Source: Candidatus Baltobacteraceae bacterium (GTDB lineage Bacteria; Vulcanimicrobiota; Vulcanimicrobiia; Vulcanimicrobiales; Vulcanimicrobiaceae). Taken from it: a stretch of DNA of 64,000 bases. The notes under the pieces are model-generated. The model was not told the DNA's origin. It did not search any database and saw nothing but the letters and a program-made list of their open reading frames with translations. Where the stretch lies: NCBI GenBank assembly GCA_035502855.1, contig DATJTX010000031.1, forward strand, positions 216,143 through 280,142, given 5' to 3'. The position numbers were made by a program, and so were the translations under genes. Positions 218 through 60,380 of this stretch are shown piece by piece (the first letter of the stretch is position 1; every line of letters starts with the position of its first letter).

Positions 218-572
218 GGGGCTGAACTAGGCTCGACGGGAAGATCCGTGGTCGGCGTTAGCAAGCGGAGTTGCGAGCTCTCCTAAAACGATCGCAACGG
301 CAATATCTGCCAACAACGAATACGCACTGGCTGCCTAATCTAGGCTAGTCACCGGACGCGGAGAGTCGGCCCGAACCGCCCCGCACTCCGGCCATCAATT
401 CGGGCTGGTACGCGAACGTGATTCGATTCGCGTACGAGATCAAGGATCTGCTGCGTACGGTAAGTCCCGCTTCGAGACGTCCGTGCGAGTAAGTCAAAGT
501 CGAAGCTGAGCTTGGAGAACGCGCCGGGCAGGCTTTTCGGACTCGGGGGGCAGTACCCCGACAGCTCCACCA
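218..572 (+). ncRNA. ssrA: transfer-messenger RNA (tmRNA)
   Basis: tmRNA rescues stalled ribosomes together with SmpB. The 5' end (GGGGCTGAACTAGGCTCGAC) matches the conserved start of tmRNA, and the 3' end gives a 7-bp acceptor stem (GGGGCTG with CAGCTCC), discriminator A569 and an encoded CCA at 570-572. The third pair of the acceptor is G-U, the alanine identity element. The tag-coding frame starts at GCA 294-296 and stops at TAA 336-338, giving the 14-residue tag ATAISANNEYALAA with the usual ALAA protease signal. Length is 355 nt, normal for the family. The T loop (GGCAGTA) is not the usual TTCAANT type. A 74-codon frame on the minus strand across this gene is a shadow. Confidence 0.93.
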
Positions 573-48547: not shown

Positions 48548-49415
48548 ACTCGACGATGCAGAGCGCTTTTGTCGCGACATGGCGCGGCGTGAAGCGAAGA
48601 ATTTTTATTGGGGATTCATTTCACTTCCGCGCGATCAGCGCAACGCCATCTACGCGCTGTACGATTTCGCCCGGCAAGTCGACGACGAAGCCGATTCTAC
48701 CGCGCACGCGCCCGATCTGCCGGGCCGCTTGCAGCGTCAGCGCGAACGCGTTGCGAAGTGCGTACGCGGTGAATACGACGACGATCCGGTAATGCAGGTG
48801 CTGGCGGGCGCCGTGCGCCGGTTCGCGATTCCCGAACGCGAGCTCCAGATGTTGATCGACGGCGTCGAGATGGACGGAACGAAGACGCGGTACGCGAGCT
48901 GGGAGGAATTGCGCGTCTATTGCAATCTGGTCGCCTCGGTGGTCGGACGGATGTGCGTTCGGATCTTCGGTTTCGAGGACGACGCGGCGCTCGAGCGCGC
49001 CGACGACCTGGGGGTCGCGCTGCAGCTCACGAATATTTTGCGTGACGTGCGTGAGGATCTCGGCCTCGGGCGCATCTATCTCCCGCTCGAGGACTTGAGG
49101 CGTTTCGGTATCAGCGAGGACCGGCTGCGTCATCCTGAGGAACTCGCGCGCAGCGCGAGCCTCGAAGGACGAGAAGGATGGGATGCGCTGATCGCTTTCG
49201 AGTCGGCGCGCGCGCGTGAGTATTTCGCGCGCGGTTACGAGGTGCTCGATTACATCAACCGGCGTCCGGCGGCGTGCGTGCGGACGATGGCCGGCATCTA
49301 CGAGCGTATTCTCGAGAAGATCGAGCGGGAGCCCGCGCTGCCCTTGCATCGCCGAGCCGGTCTCACCAAGACCGAGAAGATCGCCGCGATGGTGCGCGCG
49401 TGGCTGGGGGTGTGA
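48540..49415 (+). CDS. hpnD: Presqualene diphosphate synthase HpnD
   Basis: The 291-residue enzyme joins two farnesyl diphosphates. Conserved are NFYWGFISLPRDQRNAIYALYDFARQVDDEAD in parts, YCNLVASVVGRM and LTNILRDVREDLGLGRIYLP. GTG 48540 overlaps hpnC by 8 nt. Residues about 197-212 (RHPEELARSASLEGRE) are an exact translation of a palindromic repeat unit, inserted in frame in the loop after the second Asp-rich motif, away from the active site. Confidence 0.95.
   Translation: MLELDDAERFCRDMARREAKNFYWGFISLPRDQRNAIYALYDFARQVDDEADSTAHAPDLPGRLQRQRERVAKCVRGEYDDDPVMQVLAGAVRRFAIPERELQMLIDGVEMDGTKTRYASWEELRVYCNLVASVVGRMCVRIFGFEDDAALERADDLGVALQLTNILRDVREDLGLGRIYLPLEDLRRFGISEDRLRHPEELARSASLEGREGWDALIAFESARAREYFARGYEVLDYINRRPAACVRTMAGIYERILEKIEREPALPLHRRAGLTKTEKIAAMVRAWLGV
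49129..49172. repeat. Palindromic repeat unit inside hpnD
   Basis: GTCATCCTGAGG, then the core CTCGCGC-GCA-GCGCGAG, then CCTCGAAGGACGA: both flanks match the intergenic units at 118, 19512 and 19646 exactly in the recognisable parts. It keeps the reading frame. Confidence 0.85.
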
Positions 49416-50683
49416 ACCCGAAGCGCGTCGCGATCGTCGGGGCGGGGCTCGCGGGATTGGCGGCCGGGCTCGAATTGCGGGAGCGGGGTTTCGAGGTCGA
49501 GGTGTTCGAACGCACGCGGCTTCTCGGCGGCCGCGCAACCTCGTTTGAGATCGACGGCCGCGAGATCGACAACGGTCAGCACGTGTTCCTTCACTGCTGC
49601 GAGCGTTTCATCGCTTTCGTCGAGCGCGTTGGGATGCGCGACGCGTTACGGGAGCAGCCGCGCTTCGAAGCGCTGGTGTTGGCGCGCGACGGCACGACGA
49701 GCCGGCTGCGCGCGGCGCCGCTGCCCGCGCCCTTGCATCTCCTGGCTTCCTTCGCCGGCTACGGTCATCTCGACGTCGGCGGCCGCCTTCGCGTCGCACG
49801 CGCGTTTGCGGGAGCGGCGCTGGGCCCGCGTCCTGCGCCGGACCTCACGTTTGACGCGTGGCTCGAGCGCAACGGTCAGAACCCCGCCACGCGCCGCGCG
49901 TTCTGGGATCCGTTCTTCGTCCCCGCTCTCAACGCGTCGTTCGAACGCGTCAGCGCGGCCGACGCGCTCTTCGTGATCTCGACCGCTTTTCTGCGCGATT
50001 CGTCCGCGGCGCGCTTCGGTTTCGCAACGGTTCCGCTCGCACACGTCGCGGCAGCGGCGGCGGCGCGTATCGGCGCGGTTCATCTTTCGACCGGCGTGTT
50101 GGCGCTCGACGTGGAAGACGACGGCGTCGACCTGCAGTTGCCGGAGGGACGGCGCGAACGCTTCGACGCGGTCGTGCTCGCGGTCTCGCCGCGTACGACC
50201 GCGAAGCTGCTGGGATCACCCGAGCGGTTCGGCGTGCGCGCCCTCGAGACGTACGATCCGTATCCGATCGTCGACGTGCACGTGTGGCACGATCGAGGGG
50301 CGCTGGGTTTCGATTTTGCCGCGGTGCTCGACTCGCCGCTGCAATGGGTGTTCGAGAAGGACGCGGGTTACGTGTGCTGCAGCATCAGCGTCGCCGGCGA
50401 CGTGCTCACCGTTCCGACCGCGCAGCTCGAACGCCTGGTGTGGACCGAGCTCTCGGCGTTCATTCCGAAGCTGCGGGGCGGATCGGTGCTGCGCGCCGCG
50501 GCAACGCGCAATCCCGAGGCGACGTATCTGCCGCGCCCCGGCACGGCGCGAACGCTGCAGCGCACGGCTCATCCGCGGGTTGCGATCGCTGGCTCGTGGA
50601 CCGATACCGGCTGGCCGGACACGATGGAATCGGCCGTGCGCAGCGGAACGCTCGCAGCGGAGGCAATAGTGGGTTCCTTATGA
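49412..50683 (+). CDS. hpnE: Hydroxysqualene dehydroxylase HpnE
   Basis: The 423-residue FAD amine-oxidase-fold protein has the dinucleotide motif VAIVGAGLAGLAAGLELRER, then LLGGRATSF and NGQHVFLHCC, and a C-terminal FAD site (RVAIAGSWTDTGWPDTMESAV). It reduces hydroxysqualene to squalene. GTG 49412 overlaps the hpnD stop by 4 nt. Complete hpnC-D-E route. Confidence 0.95.
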   Translation: MNPKRVAIVGAGLAGLAAGLELRERGFEVEVFERTRLLGGRATSFEIDGREIDNGQHVFLHCCERFIAFVERVGMRDALREQPRFEALVLARDGTTSRLRAAPLPAPLHLLASFAGYGHLDVGGRLRVARAFAGAALGPRPAPDLTFDAWLERNGQNPATRRAFWDPFFVPALNASFERVSAADALFVISTAFLRDSSAARFGFATVPLAHVAAAAAARIGAVHLSTGVLALDVEDDGVDLQLPEGRRERFDAVVLAVSPRTTAKLLGSPERFGVRALETYDPYPIVDVHVWHDRGALGFDFAAVLDSPLQWVFEKDAGYVCCSISVAGDVLTVPTAQLERLVWTELSAFIPKLRGGSVLRAAATRNPEATYLPRPGTARTLQRTAHPRVAIAGSWTDTGWPDTMESAVRSGTLAAEAIVGSL

Positions 50684-52569
50684 GCGACGCGCTCGAACGC
50701 AGTATCGACTGGCTGCTCGAACGGCAATCCGGGCAGGGTTGGTGGACCGGTGAGCTCGAGACCAACGTCACGATGACGGCGGAGCAGGTGCTGCTCTACC
50801 GGTTTCTCGGCATCGATCTCGCGCCGTTCCGTGACGGCGCGATCGCGCACATGCTCGATTGCCAGCGCGAGGACGGGTCGTGGGCGCTCTACTACGACGG
50901 GCCGGCCGATCTCAGCACGACGATCGAAGCGTATGTCGCGCTGAAGGCGATCGGATTCGATCCGGCCCGCCCGCAGATGCAGCGCGCGCTCGGCGTGATT
51001 CGCCGGATGGGGGGGCTTGCACGGGCGCGCGTCTTCACCAAGATCTGGCTCGCGCTCTTCGGCGTGTATCCGTGGGACGGCATTCCGTCGCTGCCGCCGG
51101 AGATGATCTTCTTTCCGCGCTGGATGCCCTTCAACGTGTACGACTTCTCGTGCTGGGCGCGCGGCACGGTTGCGCCGCTCACGATCGTGGTCTCGAAGCG
51201 GCCGGTTCGGCCGCTCGGCGTCGACGTGCGCGAAGTGATCGACCCGCGAACCGAACCGGATCTGCATCGCGTTCCGGGATCGGGATGGATGTGGTGGCTC
51301 GACGGAGCGCTGAAAATCTACGATCGCTTCGGTTCCAATCCGATACGAGGCGCGGCGATGCGCGCGATGACGCGCTGGATCGTCGAGCGTCAGGAAGCCG
51401 ACGGAAGTTGGGGCGGCATTCAACCACCCTGGGTCTATTCGTTGATCGCGCTGGACTTGATGGGGTACGCACTCGATCATCCGGTGATGCGCAAGGGACT
51501 GCGCGGGTTCGACCGTTTCATCATCGCGGACCAGGCGCACGGATGGCGTGTCCAAGCCTGCATGTCGCCGGTGTGGGACACGGCCTGGGTGTTGCGCGCG
51601 CTCGCGCTCGCCGGCTTTACGCCCGATCATCCGGTGATACGCCGCGCGGTGCGCTGGCTACTCGACGAGCAGATTCCCGCCGGCGCGCCGGGCGACTGGC
51701 GCGTGCGCTGCGACTTTCGCGACGGCAACGGTTGGGCGTTCGAGTTCGACAACGACGCGTATCCGGATATCGACGACACCGCGGTGGTCGTCTTGGCGCT
51801 GCACGAAGCCGGCGATCCGCGGAACGTGCGCGAGGCGGTGCAGACCGGTACCGCATGGACGCGCGCGATGCGCTCGCGAAACGGCGCCTGGGGCGCGTTC
51901 GACCGCGACAATACCCGCGAGCTGCTCTATCGCATGCCCTTCGCCGACTTCGGTGCGTTGATCGATCCGCCGACCGAAGACGTGACCGCGCACGTCGTGG
52001 AGATGCTCGCGGCGCTCGGTTGCGACACGCGCGATCCCGACGTCGCAAACGGCGTCGCCTATTTGCGCGCGACGCAGCGGGCCGACGGGTCGTGGTGGGG
52101 ACGCTGGGGCGTCAACTTCATCTACGGAACCTGGTGCGCGATATCGGCACTGGGCATGCTGGGAGAAGGCGCAGATATGATCGAACGCGCTGCCGCCTGG
52201 CTGATTTCCAAGCAGAACGGTGACGGCGGCTGGGGTGAGAGCTGCCATTCCTACGTCGACGAATCGTTCGCCGGTGTAGGCACCAGCACGCCCTCGCAGA
52301 CCGCCTGGGCGGTCAACGCGCTCCAGGTCGCCAAACGTGGCGACCACCCGGCCGCGCGCCGCGGCCTGACCTATCTCAAGGAGACCCAGACCCCCGAGGG
52401 AACCTGGGAAGAGCGTCATTTTACGGGAACGGGGTTTCCACGAGACTTCTACCTGAACTACCATCTTTATCGCCACGTCTTCCCCATGATGGCGTTGGCA
52501 ACCGAAAAGCGAGAAAGCGTTGAGTTCGTTACACGAGAAACTGACGGTCGGGCGTTACATCTTCGGTAA
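50680..52569 (+). CDS. shc: Squalene-hopene cyclase
   Basis: This 629-residue enzyme cyclises squalene to hopene on the membrane. The catalytic acid motif DxDD is in AYPDIDDTAVV, and several QW repeats are seen (QREDGSWALYY, QEADGSWGGI, QRADGSWWGRW, QNGDGGWGE). ATG 50680 overlaps hpnE by 4 nt. Length and motif order are normal. The last 50 nt overlap hpnH. Confidence 0.97.
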   Translation: MSDALERSIDWLLERQSGQGWWTGELETNVTMTAEQVLLYRFLGIDLAPFRDGAIAHMLDCQREDGSWALYYDGPADLSTTIEAYVALKAIGFDPARPQMQRALGVIRRMGGLARARVFTKIWLALFGVYPWDGIPSLPPEMIFFPRWMPFNVYDFSCWARGTVAPLTIVVSKRPVRPLGVDVREVIDPRTEPDLHRVPGSGWMWWLDGALKIYDRFGSNPIRGAAMRAMTRWIVERQEADGSWGGIQPPWVYSLIALDLMGYALDHPVMRKGLRGFDRFIIADQAHGWRVQACMSPVWDTAWVLRALALAGFTPDHPVIRRAVRWLLDEQIPAGAPGDWRVRCDFRDGNGWAFEFDNDAYPDIDDTAVVVLALHEAGDPRNVREAVQTGTAWTRAMRSRNGAWGAFDRDNTRELLYRMPFADFGALIDPPTEDVTAHVVEMLAALGCDTRDPDVANGVAYLRATQRADGSWWGRWGVNFIYGTWCAISALGMLGEGADMIERAAAWLISKQNGDGGWGESCHSYVDESFAGVGTSTPSQTAWAVNALQVAKRGDHPAARRGLTYLKETQTPEGTWEERHFTGTGFPRDFYLNYHLYRHVFPMMALATEKRESVEFVTRETDGRALHLR

Positions 52570-53527
52570 GAAGCTGCGAGGCGAGAAGAAGTATCCGCTC
52601 GTCCTCGAGCTCGAACCGCTCCTGCAATGCAACCTCGCGTGCGCGGGCTGCGGCAAGATCCAGCACCCCACCGACATTTTGCGCAAGCGCCTGAGCGTCG
52701 AGGAATGTCTTGCAGCGGTGGAAGAGTGCGGGGCGCCGTGCGTCTCGATCGCAGGGGGCGAGCCGCTGATCCACGATCAGATGCCGCAGATCGTCAGCGA
52801 ACTGCTCGCGCGCAAGAAATTCGTCTTCCTGTGCACCAACGCGCTATTGCTCGAGAAGAAGATCGATCAGTTCAAGCCGTCACCGTATTTCGCGTGGATG
52901 ATCCATCTCGACGGGCTCGAAGAGGGCCACGACGCTTCGGTCTGCCGCGACGGCGTGTTCGAGAAAGCGATATCGGCGATCAAGACGGCGAAGGCGAAGG
53001 GTTTCAAGGTCATCACCAATACGACGTTCTTCAATCGTGACGACGCGGCGTCGATCCGGGCCGTACTCGACTATCTCAACAACGATCTCAAAGTCGACAT
53101 GATGCAGATCTCACCGGGTTACGCCTACGAGAAAGCGCCGGACCAGGAAGGTTTCCTCGGCGTCGAGCGTACGCGCGAGATTTTCCGCGAGGCGTTCGCC
53201 GGCGAGAAGCGCAAGGAATGGCGGCTCAACCACAGCCCGCTCTATCTCGATTTCCTCGAAGGCAAGGTCGATTTCGAGTGCACGCCGTGGGGCATTCCCT
53301 GTTACACGGTTTTCGGTTGGCAGCGCCCCTGTTACTTGATGAGTGACGCGCCGTACGCGAAAACGTACAAGGAATTGATCGAAGAGACCGATTGGGAGAA
53401 GTACGGTCGCGGCAAGCACCCCAGCTGCAACAACTGCATGGCGCACTGCGGCTACGAGCCGACGGCCGTGATTCGCACCACCGGCTCGGTCAAGGAATCG
53501 ATTCGCGCAGCCCTTGGCAGCCGGTAG
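52520..53527 (+). CDS. hpnH: Adenosyl-hopene transferase HpnH (radical SAM)
   Basis: The 335-residue enzyme has the iron-sulphur motif CNLACAGC (CxxxCxxC), SIAGGEPLIH, and a C-terminal Cys cluster (CNNCMAHCGYEPTA). HpnH adds adenosine to diploptene, giving adenosylhopane, the entry to C35 hopanoids. TTG 52520 lies inside shc. It overlaps hpnA by 14 nt. Confidence 0.96.
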   Translation: MSSLHEKLTVGRYIFGKKLRGEKKYPLVLELEPLLQCNLACAGCGKIQHPTDILRKRLSVEECLAAVEECGAPCVSIAGGEPLIHDQMPQIVSELLARKKFVFLCTNALLLEKKIDQFKPSPYFAWMIHLDGLEEGHDASVCRDGVFEKAISAIKTAKAKGFKVITNTTFFNRDDAASIRAVLDYLNNDLKVDMMQISPGYAYEKAPDQEGFLGVERTREIFREAFAGEKRKEWRLNHSPLYLDFLEGKVDFECTPWGIPCYTVFGWQRPCYLMSDAPYAKTYKELIEETDWEKYGRGKHPSCNNCMAHCGYEPTAVIRTTGSVKESIRAALGSR

Positions 53528-54473
53528 CCGCGATCTCGTCTTTCTCACCGGCGCGTCCGGGTTCGTCGGTGCGCACGTCTTGCGCGCACTGATCGGCGCC
53601 GGCTATGAGGTACGGGCGCTCGCTCGCGCCCCGCTCGCCGTCGAGGGTGAATGTGAGACGGTTCGCGGTGACCTGAGCGAACCCGGCGCCGTCGCGCGTT
53701 CGCTGGAAGGATGCCGCTATCTCGTCCACACCGCCGCGCACTACTCGTTTGCACCAAGCGATCGCGAACGAATCTATCGCGTGAACGTCGCGGGCACCGA
53801 GGGCCTCTTCGCGGCCGCGCACATCGCCGGTGTCGAACGCGCCGTGCTGACCTCGAGCTCGGCAACGCTCGGTCACGAAAGCGAGCCCAACGCATTGCGC
53901 GCCGCTTCCTATCATCGATCGAAAGTGTTGCAAGAGCGCGCCGCCTTTGCCGGGCGCGTTCCGACCGTGGCGGTCTTGCCGACCGCGCCGGTTGGCCCCG
54001 GCGATTGGAAGCCAACGCCGACGGGCCGGATGATCGTCGATTTCATGCGCGGCAGGATGATCGCCCGTCCGCCTGCGAGCGGCGGAATGAACGTCGTGGA
54101 CGTCGAGCAGGTCGCGCAAGCGCACGTCGCGGCGCTGCAACGCGGGACTGCCGGCGAACGCTACGTGGTCGGCGGCGAAGATCTTTCGTTCGATGCCCTC
54201 TGGGATCTGCTGGCGCAACTCACCGGCCGCAGCGCTCCGCGTTGGCGCGCCCCGGTTGCGCTCATGTTTGCGGCCGGGTGGTTCGACGAGGTGCGCTGCC
54301 GCCTCACGCGCGCCGAGCCGTTCGTTCCGCTCGAAGGCGTGCGGCTTTCGCGCACGCGGATGTACGCGGATTCTTCGGCCGCGCAGCAGGCGCTCGGCGT
54401 ATCGCTGCGCCCGGTTCGCGATGCGCTCGCGCGTGCCGTCGCGTGGTATCGAGAGCATGGATACGCAGCATGA
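53514..54473 (+). CDS. hpnA: Hopanoid-associated sugar epimerase HpnA
   Basis: In this 319-residue extended SDR, the nucleotide motif is TGASGFVGAHVLRAL and the catalytic Tyr-Lys is YHRSK, with Ser/Thr in LTSSSATLG. HpnA occurs regularly with hopanoid genes; its exact substrate is unsettled. TTG 53514 overlaps the end of hpnH; the end overlaps hpnG by 17 nt. Confidence 0.94.
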   Translation: MAAGSRDLVFLTGASGFVGAHVLRALIGAGYEVRALARAPLAVEGECETVRGDLSEPGAVARSLEGCRYLVHTAAHYSFAPSDRERIYRVNVAGTEGLFAAAHIAGVERAVLTSSSATLGHESEPNALRAASYHRSKVLQERAAFAGRVPTVAVLPTAPVGPGDWKPTPTGRMIVDFMRGRMIARPPASGGMNVVDVEQVAQAHVAALQRGTAGERYVVGGEDLSFDALWDLLAQLTGRSAPRWRAPVALMFAAGWFDEVRCRLTRAEPFVPLEGVRLSRTRMYADSSAAQQALGVSLRPVRDALARAVAWYREHGYAA

Positions 54474-55065
54474 GCCGCCGACGGTTGTTACGGCGACCGG
54501 ATTGGAAACACGTGCGGTCCGCCGCCGGGCGGCCGGCGCTCGCGTGGTGGAAGCCGGCGTCGGGCTTGCGAATGTAGGTCGGGCATCGTTTCGCGGGCTC
54601 GCCGTCAGCTGCGGTCTTGCGGGCGGCGTACGCGACGATCTTGCAACCGGTACGATCCTGATTCCGTCCGTGGTTGCGACGACCGCGGGACGGAGCATCG
54701 CGTGTGATGCGATGTGGACCGCTCGTTTACGTGCGGCGGCAGCGCGTCTGGGCTATGCGTACGTCGATGCGCCGCTGCTCACCAGCGAAACGCTGATCAC
54801 CGGCAGCGCGCGGGCGCCGTGGGCATCGCGCGGCTTTGCCGCCGTCGATATGGAAACGGCCGCGATTCCGGCGAGCGCGATTGCGGCGGTCCGCGTGATC
54901 CTCGATACGCCGAAGCGAGAGCTTTCGCCGGATTGGCTGTACCCGGCGCGCGCGATGCTGCGGCCGAAGAACTGGGGCCAAGCGCTTTGGCTCGCGCGCG
55001 TCGCGCCGCGCTGCGCGGACGTGGCGGCGCACATCGTTGCGGCAGCGTTAGCGCAGGGCGCGTAG
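54457..55065 (+). CDS. hpnG: Adenosylhopane nucleosidase-like protein HpnG
   Basis: The 202-residue nucleoside phosphorylase-fold protein has GVGLANVGRASF-type N-terminal loop, SCGLAGGVRDDLATGTIL and the catalytic region FAAVDMETAAIPA with Glu. HpnG removes adenine from adenosylhopane to give ribosylhopane. It ends the operon; the convergent acyltransferase gene overlaps it by 18 nt. Confidence 0.93.
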   Translation: MDTQHEPPTVVTATGLETRAVRRRAAGARVVEAGVGLANVGRASFRGLAVSCGLAGGVRDDLATGTILIPSVVATTAGRSIACDAMWTARLRAAAARLGYAYVDAPLLTSETLITGSARAPWASRGFAAVDMETAAIPASAIAAVRVILDTPKRELSPDWLYPARAMLRPKNWGQALWLARVAPRCADVAAHIVAAALAQGA

Positions 55066-57518: not shown

Positions 57519-58106
57519 ATGGAAACACAACCGTCAGTTTTCTGGCAGCATGATTACGCGGCGATGCTCGAACGCGCCAGGACCGAGCACAAGTTCATCT
57601 TCCTGGATATTTTCAACCCCGGTTGAGGAGGGTGCCAAGCGCTGGATACCGTGACGTATCCGCTCGACCTGGTCAAAGAGACCATTGCCGCACACGCGAT
57701 CCCGGTGCAGATCGACAACTCGGACGCGAAGAACAATGCCTTTCTCCACACGATTCACCATATCTGGACGCCCGATATCCGCATCATTCATAGCGACGGA
57801 TACGAGCTGTATCGCTGGGACGGCTTCTTGCCGCCGTTCGAGTTCGTGCCGCGGGTGCAGTGCGCGATCGGTCTGGCGTTTCTGCGTCTGAAGCGTTTCG
57901 ACGACGCGGAGCGCTGCTACGTCGACGTGCTGCGCCGCTATTCGACGAGTTACGCGGCTCCCGAAGCGCAGTACTATCTCGGCGTGACGCGCTATCGCCG
58001 CGATCACGAGAGCGACGAGCTGCCGGCGCAGTGGGCGCAGCTGCGCGCGCGCTACCCGATGAGTGAATACCGCGTCAAGCAGTCGTTCAAAGAATTGCCC
58101 GAGTAA
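57519..58106 (+). CDS. Thioredoxin-fold candidate selenoprotein (U-G-G-C) with TPR-like tail
   Basis: From ATG 57519 the frame meets TGA at 57624-57626 and continues in the same frame to 58106, 195 residues if TGA is read as selenocysteine (Sec36). The sequence around it (HKFIFLDIFNPG, Sec, GGCQALDTVTYP) is a thioredoxin active-site strand and helix in which the first Cys of CxxC is replaced by the TGA codon. Homology-like features run unbroken across it, including the later WTPDIRIIHSDG strand. A hairpin at 57644-57661 fits a bacterial SECIS. Residues 110-190 form TPR-like helices (GLAFLRLKRFDDAERCYVDVLRRY). Any start after the TGA would lose the active site. A redox role is likely. selA, selB, selC and selD are not in the window. 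Confidence 0.85.
57644..57661 (+). promoter_or_regulatory. Candidate bacterial SECIS hairpin
   Basis: GGATAC and GTATCC form a perfect 6-bp stem (a U-G pair can extend it) with the loop CGTGAC. The loop begins 23 nt after the UGA, within the usual 16-37 nt, and a G is the second loop base, as bacterial SECIS elements require. Confidence 0.7.
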
Positions 58107-59627: not shown

Positions 59628-60380
59628 ATGCAATTCGAACGCGATCTGGCCGGAAGCACGGCCTTGGTAACCGGATCCACCAGCGGAATCGGGAAGGCGA
59701 CGGCGGTGGCGCTGGCTCGCCGGGGAGCGCGCGTGCTGGTCTCCGGCCGCGACGAGAAGCGGGGGCAGGAGGTCGCGGCCGCGATCCGGGCTGCCGGCGG
59801 CGAAGCCCAGTTTCTCAAGGCCGATCTGAGCGACGGCAGCTCGGTGCGCGAGCTTGCTCGCGCGGCCATCGCTGCTGCCGGCCGCGTCGATATCCTGGTC
59901 AACAACGCCGGCATCTTCCCGTTCGGGCCGACGCAAGAAATGACGGAAGAGACGTTCGATCGCGTCTACGCAACAAACGTCAAAGCGCCGTTTCTGCTCG
60001 TCGCGGAACTTGCGCCGCAGATGGCGGAGCGCGGCGCGGGTGCGATCGTCAACGTGAGCTCGATGGTCGGAGACTTCGGCCAAGCCGGGATGGCGTTGTA
60101 CGGATCGAGCAAAGCGGCGCTCAATCTGCTCACGAAAGCGTGGGCGGCGGAATTCGGACCGAAGGGCGTTCGCGTGAACGCCGTCAGCCCCGGGCCGACG
60201 AGAACCGAAGGAACCGCCGCGATGGGCGACGGTGTCGCGCAACTCGCGGCGATGGCGCCGGCCGGTCACCCGGGCACGCCGGAAGAAATTGCCGACGCGA
60301 TCGTCTACTTGGCATCGAGCGGCGCGAGCTTCGTGCACGGCGTCGTGCTGCCGGTCGACGGCGGCCGTGCGGCCGTGTAG
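59628..60380 (+). CDS. Short-chain dehydrogenase/reductase
   Basis: The 250-residue protein has the NAD(P) motif TGSTSGIGKATAVAL, NNAG, and catalytic Ser (VNVSSMVGD) and Tyr-Lys (YGSSKAAL). SGRDEKR after strand 2 suggests NADP preference. Divergent from and probably regulated by the TetR protein through twin palindromes. Such pairs often handle a xenobiotic or signal carbonyl compound. Substrate unknown. Confidence 0.95.
   Translation: MQFERDLAGSTALVTGSTSGIGKATAVALARRGARVLVSGRDEKRGQEVAAAIRAAGGEAQFLKADLSDGSSVRELARAAIAAAGRVDILVNNAGIFPFGPTQEMTEETFDRVYATNVKAPFLLVAELAPQMAERGAGAIVNVSSMVGDFGQAGMALYGSSKAALNLLTKAWAAEFGPKGVRVNAVSPGPTRTEGTAAMGDGVAQLAAMAPAGHPGTPEEIADAIVYLASSGASFVHGVVLPVDGGRAAV

What the first reader, a model, noticed from the sequence alone, without database searches (positions are those of the whole stretch)
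57519..58106. Candidate selenoprotein: thioredoxin-fold U-G-G-C active site encoded by in-frame UGA
The TGA at 57624 sits exactly where the first Cys of a thioredoxin CxxC is expected (NPG-U-GGC). Protein-like sequence continues in the same frame for 159 codons, and a 6-bp hairpin with G as second loop base begins at the distance required of a bacterial SECIS. A normal annotation would cut the gene after codon 35 or start it after the active site. UGGC with a TPR-like tail is not a selenoprotein type I know. It differs from the UGSC family by motif and context.
Basis: partly seen in the sequence, partly recalled or inferred. Interest (0 to 1): 0.93.

Follow-up and report, generated by a model that had tools for sequence, protein, structure and literature searches.

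The report
Selenium thioredoxin with TPR tail
A bacterial gene has a UGA stop codon in its middle, at the same place in all 37 genomes of its phylum where a homologue could be read across that site, and this codon is predicted to be read as selenocysteine, so that selenium would sit in the active site of a likely redox protein whose closest database entries lack the front end.

Summary
The window (probably Candidatus Eremiobacterota) has an ATG at 57519, an in-frame TGA at 57624 and 159 further codons to TAA at 58106. In 149 genomes of the phylum, all 37 homologues that span the site have TGA there. The 30 codons before it are under purifying selection like those after it. Codons +6 to +11 after the UGA are nearly frozen at synonymous sites (pS 0.09 against 0.67) and form a 6-bp hairpin in 37 of 37, with three A-U to G-C double changes. 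The genome has selA, selB, selD, tRNA-Sec and a TGA-containing formate dehydrogenase. Distant homologues carry Cys at the same column. AlphaFold (pLDDT 94) gives a thioredoxin fold with residue 36 at the start of the active-site helix, then TPR-like helices. No NCBIfam model reaches its cut-off, and a 2026 inventory table of 119 families lists no thioredoxin-TPR selenoprotein, but its PF13098 'UxxC' entry cannot be excluded as the same family. Selenium insertion itself is not shown. Best reading: a new selenoprotein family, a UxGC thiol-disulfide oxidoreductase, likely cytosolic, with a likely protein-binding tail.

The parts
57519..58106 (+). Complete reading frame of the predicted selenoprotein: 195 residues with Sec at 36, TAA stop included
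   Evidence: homologues across the site in 37 genomes, two of them cut at a contig end
57624..57626 (+). In-frame TGA, predicted selenocysteine codon (residue 36), first residue of the UGGC motif
   Evidence: TGA in 37 of 37 homologues; Cys in 11 of 30 full-length distant homologues
57633..57635 (+). TGC, Cys39, predicted resolving cysteine; with Gly38 invariant in 47 aligned sequences
57644..57661 (+). Predicted bacterial SECIS upper hairpin: 6-bp stem 57644-57649 with 57656-57661, loop CGUGAC 57650-57655
   Evidence: 222 of 222 cells paired, 3 cells with double changes; codons frozen; 37 of 37 full helix against 4.5% in synonymous recodings
57534..57833 (+). Thioredoxin-like domain, residues 6-105 (boundary from the model); WTP motif at residues 83-85
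57834..58079 (+). TPR-like helical tail, residues 106-187 (helices 106-123, 127-140, 147-161, 167-178, 183-187)
57651..58106 (+). What a mechanical ORF list gives instead: a 151-aa ORF from a GTG after the UGA
   Evidence: the 120 listed database homologues are 135-160 aa long

Best explanation
The UGA at 57624 is predicted to be decoded as selenocysteine by the genome's own SelB and tRNA-Sec, guided by a likely SECIS hairpin at 57644-57661, which would give a 195-residue protein with a predicted thioredoxin-like domain whose UGGC motif would be the active site, followed by predicted TPR-like helices. Shown by calls: the conserved UGA, purifying selection on both sides of it, the conserved hairpin, the selenocysteine machinery genes, Cys homologues at the same column. 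Predicted: the fold and the place of residue 36 at the start of the active-site helix. Inferred: Sec36 attacks a disulfide or oxidised thiol and Cys39 resolves the selenenylsulfide; the protein works in the cytosol, since no signal peptide or membrane stretch is apparent by eye (no predictor run); the tail binds partner or client proteins. Selenium insertion has not been shown by experiment.
For: 37 of 37 spanning homologues have TGA. Upstream codons are under purifying selection. Hairpin: CTG 33 of 35 Leu, GAT 34 of 34 Asp, ACG 36 of 36 Thr, TAT 34 of 37 Tyr, against 33, 36, 53 and 42% in the rest of the same genes; the three rows with GGT have TAC, an A-U to G-C double change. It meets the published bSECIS constraints (loop 3-9 nt, stem 4-16 bp, G in the first two loop positions, spacing 16-37 nt, MFE at most -7.5) as given in a figure legend of PMC13188914; MFE met in 37 of 37. 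Own genome: selA 515 bits (cut-off 268), selB 324 (242), tRNA-Sec 72.5 (47) with anticodon tca, selD 374 (125), FdhA 1015 bits with one in-frame TGA at RIUHSST. Cys homologues. Model pLDDT 93.8, pTM 0.89, thioredoxin-fold matches.
Against: The UGA region of the window folds no better than shuffles (z 0.15), and the hairpin is in the predicted MFE fold of only 26 of 37 (in two of the other 11, L052 and L053, the stem folded alone is a 7-bp form). Covariation is slight: one pair, three rows; 111 of 500 shuffles reach one such pair, and the structure slid by +2 has the same number of doubly changed cells and nearly the same score (0.116 against 0.118), though only 38.7% of its cells pair. One 96%-complete genome with the gene, G024, has no selA and no selB or tRNA-Sec over cut-off; G048 (63% complete) has no selA and no selB over cut-off. 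selB is over cut-off in 32 of 37 and tRNA-Sec at 60 bits or more in 28 of 37 (my counts). The residues 1-52 search found no homologue, so the Cys evidence comes only from the distant branch. No neighbour is widely conserved to hint at a substrate. TPR profiles are below their cut-offs.
Confidence: 0.9

Rival explanations
1. It is a selenoprotein, but not a new family: the wider UxGC family is the inventory entry 'Thiol:disulfide interchange protein' (PF13098, UxxC) and the Eremiobacterota proteins are a divergent branch of it.
For: Our protein scores 26.2 bits to PF13098 (cut-off 27), and many wider homologues carry PF13098. The entry has the same UxxC motif class.
Against: The entry is named without a TPR tail, and no NCBIfam model reaches its cut-off for the window protein or for two distant members. 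PF13098 is a broad domain.
Confidence: 0.2
2. The UGA is a true stop; the functional product is a 151-residue TPR-like protein started at the GTG at 57651, as databases list its homologues.
For: This is what a mechanical ORF list gives and the form of the 120 listed homologues. A start codon follows the UGA closely.
Against: Upstream codons are conserved as protein in 37 genomes without any stop; a truncated product would lack the first strand and the active site of the predicted fold; Cys homologues are full length.
Confidence: 0.03
3. The UGA is read as another amino acid (Trp or Cys) by a changed code or by readthrough.
For: 17 of 30 full-length database homologues have Trp at this column, which I read as gene calling under a code with TGA=W.
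Against: 8 of the 37 homologues end at TGA; the genome has selenocysteine machinery genes and a TGA-containing FdhA; the SECIS-like hairpin is conserved.
Confidence: 0.03
4. Sequencing error or a decaying gene.
For: None beyond the stop itself.
Against: The same TGA in 37 genomes and purifying selection on both sides.
Confidence: 0.005

Closest known systems
Thiol:disulfide interchange protein, predicted selenoprotein family (PF13098, UxxC; WP_011366075.1 in the tables of PMC13188914 and PMC9312934)
   Same: Thioredoxin-like domain, UxxC motif; our protein is just under the PF13098 cut-off
   Different: No TPR tail is named; sequence not held here, so relation untested
VPGUxxT thioredoxin-like (seleno)proteins (NF041383, NF041382)
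   Same: Thioredoxin-like N-terminus with Sec after Pro-Gly
   Different: 24.4 bits against a cut-off of 275, and 15.3 against 350; our motif is NPG-U-GGC with a second Cys
UGSC-containing selenoprotein (NF041046)
   Same: Sec four-residue motif ending in Cys
   Different: No match at E up to 1
DsbD C-terminal (gamma) domain and DsbH
   Different: Cys not Sec; DsbD is a large membrane protein (recalled); no TPR tail
CnoX (YbbN) chaperedoxin, thioredoxin domain plus TPR
   Same: Domain order thioredoxin then TPR (recalled for CnoX); 3qou is among the matches (E 5.9e-05); the abstract of PMC6282202 describes CnoX as combining chaperone and redox protective function
   Different: Whole-chain superposition is poor (TMq 0.39, rmsd 11.6, 11% identity); shorter chain; no Sec known in CnoX (recalled)

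Membership tests
Bacterial selenoprotein | In-frame UGA conserved at one column across homologues | tested here: met
   37 of 37
Bacterial selenoprotein | Cys-containing homologues aligning Cys to the UGA | tested here: met
   11 of 30 full-length distant homologues have Cys; 17 have Trp, 2 Ser; the 11 Cys rows are aligned
Bacterial selenoprotein | bSECIS hairpin downstream (loop 3-9 nt, stem 4-16 bp, G in first two loop positions, spacing 16-37 nt, MFE at most -7.5) | tested here: met
   Loop 6 nt, stem 6 bp, second base G then U, spacing 23 nt; 222 of 222 cells paired; MFE met in 37 of 37, hairpin in the MFE fold of 26 of 37; criteria from a figure legend of PMC13188914
Bacterial selenoprotein | SelA, SelB, SelD and tRNA-Sec in the genome | tested here: met
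   for the own genome
Bacterial selenoprotein | Selenium found in the protein | not testable with these tools
   needs 75Se labelling or mass spectrometry
Thioredoxin-like domain (Pfam Thioredoxin_7, PF13899) | Score over the curated cut-off | tested here: met
   31.9 bits, cut-off 27; fold matches
VPGUxxT thioredoxin-like selenoprotein (NF041383) | Score over the curated cut-off of 275 bits | tested here: not met
   24.4 bits
UGSC selenoprotein (NF041046) | Match to the NCBIfam model | tested here: not met
   no match at E up to 1
Thiol:disulfide interchange protein selenoprotein (PF13098, UxxC) | PF13098 over cut-off | tested here: inconclusive
   26.2 bits, cut-off 27; many distant homologues carry PF13098
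Thiol:disulfide interchange protein selenoprotein (PF13098, UxxC) | Full-length similarity to WP_011366075.1 | not testable with these tools
CnoX chaperedoxin | Thioredoxin domain followed by a TPR domain in the CnoX arrangement | tested here: inconclusive
   the order is the same, but the match with 3qou has rmsd 11.6 and TMq 0.39
CnoX chaperedoxin | Holdase activity and client transfer | not testable with these tools
   needs an aggregation assay

The most novel reading that the evidence does not exclude
A selenium chaperedoxin: a cytosolic protein in which a TPR-like tail grips misfolded or oxidised client proteins while the selenocysteine of the thioredoxin head reduces or shields their thiols. 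This would put selenium into protein quality control, in a family that by its source labels spans several bacterial phyla, seems to interchange Sec and Cys repeatedly, and is recorded mostly as headless TPR proteins.
Probability: 0.2. Interest if true: 0.78.

Novelty: new variant of a known kind. Interest (0 to 1): 0.62.

Why it matters
The mechanism (UGA, bSECIS, SelB) is known, but a Sec thioredoxin joined to a TPR-like tail matched no NCBIfam model over cut-off and is not in the 2026 inventory table. The family is large: 396 proteins at E up to 1e-3 and 1562. The 120 listed in the first search and 90 of the 120 listed in the second are cut off after the UGA column, so the redox domain is lost in those records. 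The frozen codons make the SECIS of this family directly testable, and its Sec and Cys forms allow a comparison of what selenium adds.

Tried and rejected
Rejected: true stop with restart, changed code, sequencing error (see rivals). A stability test of the UGA region against shuffles gave no signal (z 0.15). A search with residues 1-52 alone found no candidate sharing three words; it finds only near relatives, so this does not prove absence. A viral-contig scan with two distant members found 48 pattern stretches and no relative; a plasmid search found only two DsbD matches. The scan of genome contigs gave 2 relatives, both titled Candidatus Eremiobacterota. Neighbourhood: five proteins around the gene were compared with the 37 loci; four matched only the own locus and the fifth (59628-60380) lies outside the fetched flank. 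A first clustering of flank ORFs mixed in frames overlapping the gene (a group of 31 loci); repeated with the gene cut out, no flank ORF group spans more than 6 of 37 loci, all six of one genus (flanks about 1.5 kb, shorter or absent on one side in L018, L020, L021, L030). One hit, G032, starts at its contig edge at residue 108 and cannot show the codon; it was left out of the 37. The other matches, at E 2e-7 or weaker, cover thioredoxin-like or TPR-like parts of other frames and were left out unread. Co-occurrence with selA: 35 of 122 genomes with a selA match and 2 of 27 without have the gene, Fisher P 0.025; modest, and relatedness is not corrected. A second tRNA-Sec match of the own genome, 47.9 bits, just over the cut-off, was not examined. 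I could not show from DNA that the 17 Trp-bearing database proteins have TGA. Literature: no paper for selenoprotein or selenocysteine with Eremiobacterota/Eremiobacter; one, irrelevant by its title, for WPS-2; by their listings none on a thioredoxin-TPR selenoprotein. The library holds open-licence papers only, so this does not show absence from print. The VIA-align table covers mainly residues 4-129; that a family is missing from it is not counted as evidence.

Full report
What is there. The + strand frame from ATG 57519 to TAA 58106 is open for 195 codons except for one TGA at 57624-57626, codon 36. The residues around it read FNPG-U-GGCQALDTVTYP. A mechanical ORF list gives only a 151-residue ORF from a GTG at 57651. 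The protein-database search returned 396 proteins at E up to 1e-3; the 120 listed are 135 to 160 residues long, and 111 of them begin with MTYP or VTYP, right after the UGA. So these records hold the family as a headless TPR protein.

Where it is. The window is contig C31 of a 3.33-Mb genome, 96.6% complete. A same-genus genome (G033) carries the gene on a contig of 10,366 bases, the length of the record PMUE01000191.1 found by the same query and titled Candidatus Eremiobacterota bacterium. I take the window to be of that phylum.

Conservation of the codon. Searching 149 genomes of the phylum gave 67 with a match. 37 genomes, the own one included, hold a homologue that spans the site, two of them cut at a contig end further on (L021, L030); all 37 have TGA there. 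Extra stops noted for some rows are the terminal stop codons. A further match begins at a contig edge after the site (G032); the remaining matches are weak (E 2e-7 or weaker) and were not read. 35 of the 37 have UGGC and form one clade in a tree with 32 others (support 1.0); the two most distant (G010, G013) have UIGC.

The sequence before the UGA is coding. In 37 of 37 there is no in-frame stop in the 30 codons before the UGA. Over all pairs pN/pS is 0.52 before and 0.46 after the UGA, and 0.97 in a same-frame control before the start codon (36 sequences). For the window and its same-genus relative, dN and dS are 0.129 and 1.08 before, 0.073 and 0.95 after.

The hairpin. Codons +6 to +11 read CTG GAT ACC GTG ACG TAT in most rows. 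Among columns with a conserved residue, normalised synonymous entropy there is 0.12, 0, 0.15, 0 and 0.41 (five scored), against a mean of 0.73 and a minimum of 0.30 in 58 other columns; pS is 0.094 against 0.67. These codons form a 6-bp stem with loop CGUGAC in the window: 222 of 222 cells pair, no slid version exceeds 54%, and one pair has a double change in three rows, where GAT becomes GGT and TAT becomes TAC. The covariation score (0.118) is reached by 1 of 500 shuffles, but one doubly changed pair is reached by 111 of 500, and the version slid by +2 scores 0.116; the covariation is thus weak by itself. All 37 form the full helix; synonymous recoding of the same peptides does so in 4.5%. 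The rows are related, so the counts are not independent events; the rest of the same genes is the control. The element meets the published bSECIS constraints (PMC13188914, figure legend seen as a passage). Against it: the window region is not more stable than shuffles (z 0.15) and in 11 of 37 the simple hairpin is not in the MFE fold (two of these, folded alone, give a 7-bp stem). The genome's FdhA UGA is followed by a stem with a GGUCU loop 18 nt after the UGA.

Machinery. The own genome has selA, selB, tRNA-Sec (anticodon tca) and selD over the curated cut-offs, the first three within about 20 kb, and an FdhA with one in-frame TGA. Of the 37 genomes with the gene, 35 have selA and 32 selB over cut-off, and 28 a tRNA-Sec match of 60 bits or more (my counts). 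G024 is the exception that matters: 96% complete, gene present, no selA, no selB or tRNA-Sec over cut-off. An incomplete assembly of one cluster or a misbinned contig would explain it, but I did not test this.

Cys forms. A search with the two distant members found 1562 proteins; of 120 listed, 90 are truncated and 30 full length. At the UGA column these 30 have Cys in 11, Trp in 17, Ser in 2 (one Cys row, P0137, was read by eye since the script's pattern missed it). The Trp rows are probably TGA read under a code with TGA=W, an inference. Source labels include Geobacteraceae (Cys, P0137) and, truncated, Deltaproteobacteria and Candidatus Tectomicrobia. On the tree, Cys and Trp rows are interleaved. 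In 47 aligned sequences (28 of the 37 UGA readings, the window included, and 19 of the 30 full-length database proteins) Gly38, Cys39 and the WTP motif at 83-85 are invariant.

Known or new. NCBIfam gives no model over cut-off for the window protein or two distant members. The inventory of PMC13188914 (119 families and subfamilies; its Table 1 read in section 7 parts 1 and 2 of 3, plus passages) lists no thioredoxin-TPR selenoprotein; its entry 'Thiol:disulfide interchange protein, PF13098, UxxC' could be related and could not be compared. Of PMC12013277, PMC9312934 and PMC1088965 I saw passages only. I therefore file it as a new variant: a selenoprotein family of a known kind (UxxC thioredoxin fold) with an architecture not listed there.

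Noticed in passing
G024 (L057 is the contig): A 96%-complete genome keeps the UGA gene but shows no selA and no selB or tRNA-Sec over cut-off.
   Followed up: no
Database proteins P0123-P0125, P0127, P0129-P0136, P0140, P0150, P0152, P0176, P0183: 17 of 30 full-length homologues have Trp at the UGA column (for instance NPGWIGC), probably because gene callers used a code with TGA=W; such Trp could flag hidden selenoproteins in general.
   Followed up: partly
L060, G000:C39:93662-96604: Formate dehydrogenase alpha subunit of the same genome has an in-frame TGA in RIUHSST, a second likely selenoprotein.
   Followed up: yes
window 49274-55065: A run of genes that by translation look like hopanoid synthesis (FAD desaturase-like, squalene-hopene cyclase-like, radical SAM, NAD epimerase, nucleosidase-like); names recalled, no family search run.
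   Followed up: no
window 218-572: tmRNA, 121.3 bits, the only Rfam match over its gathering score in the window.
   Followed up: no
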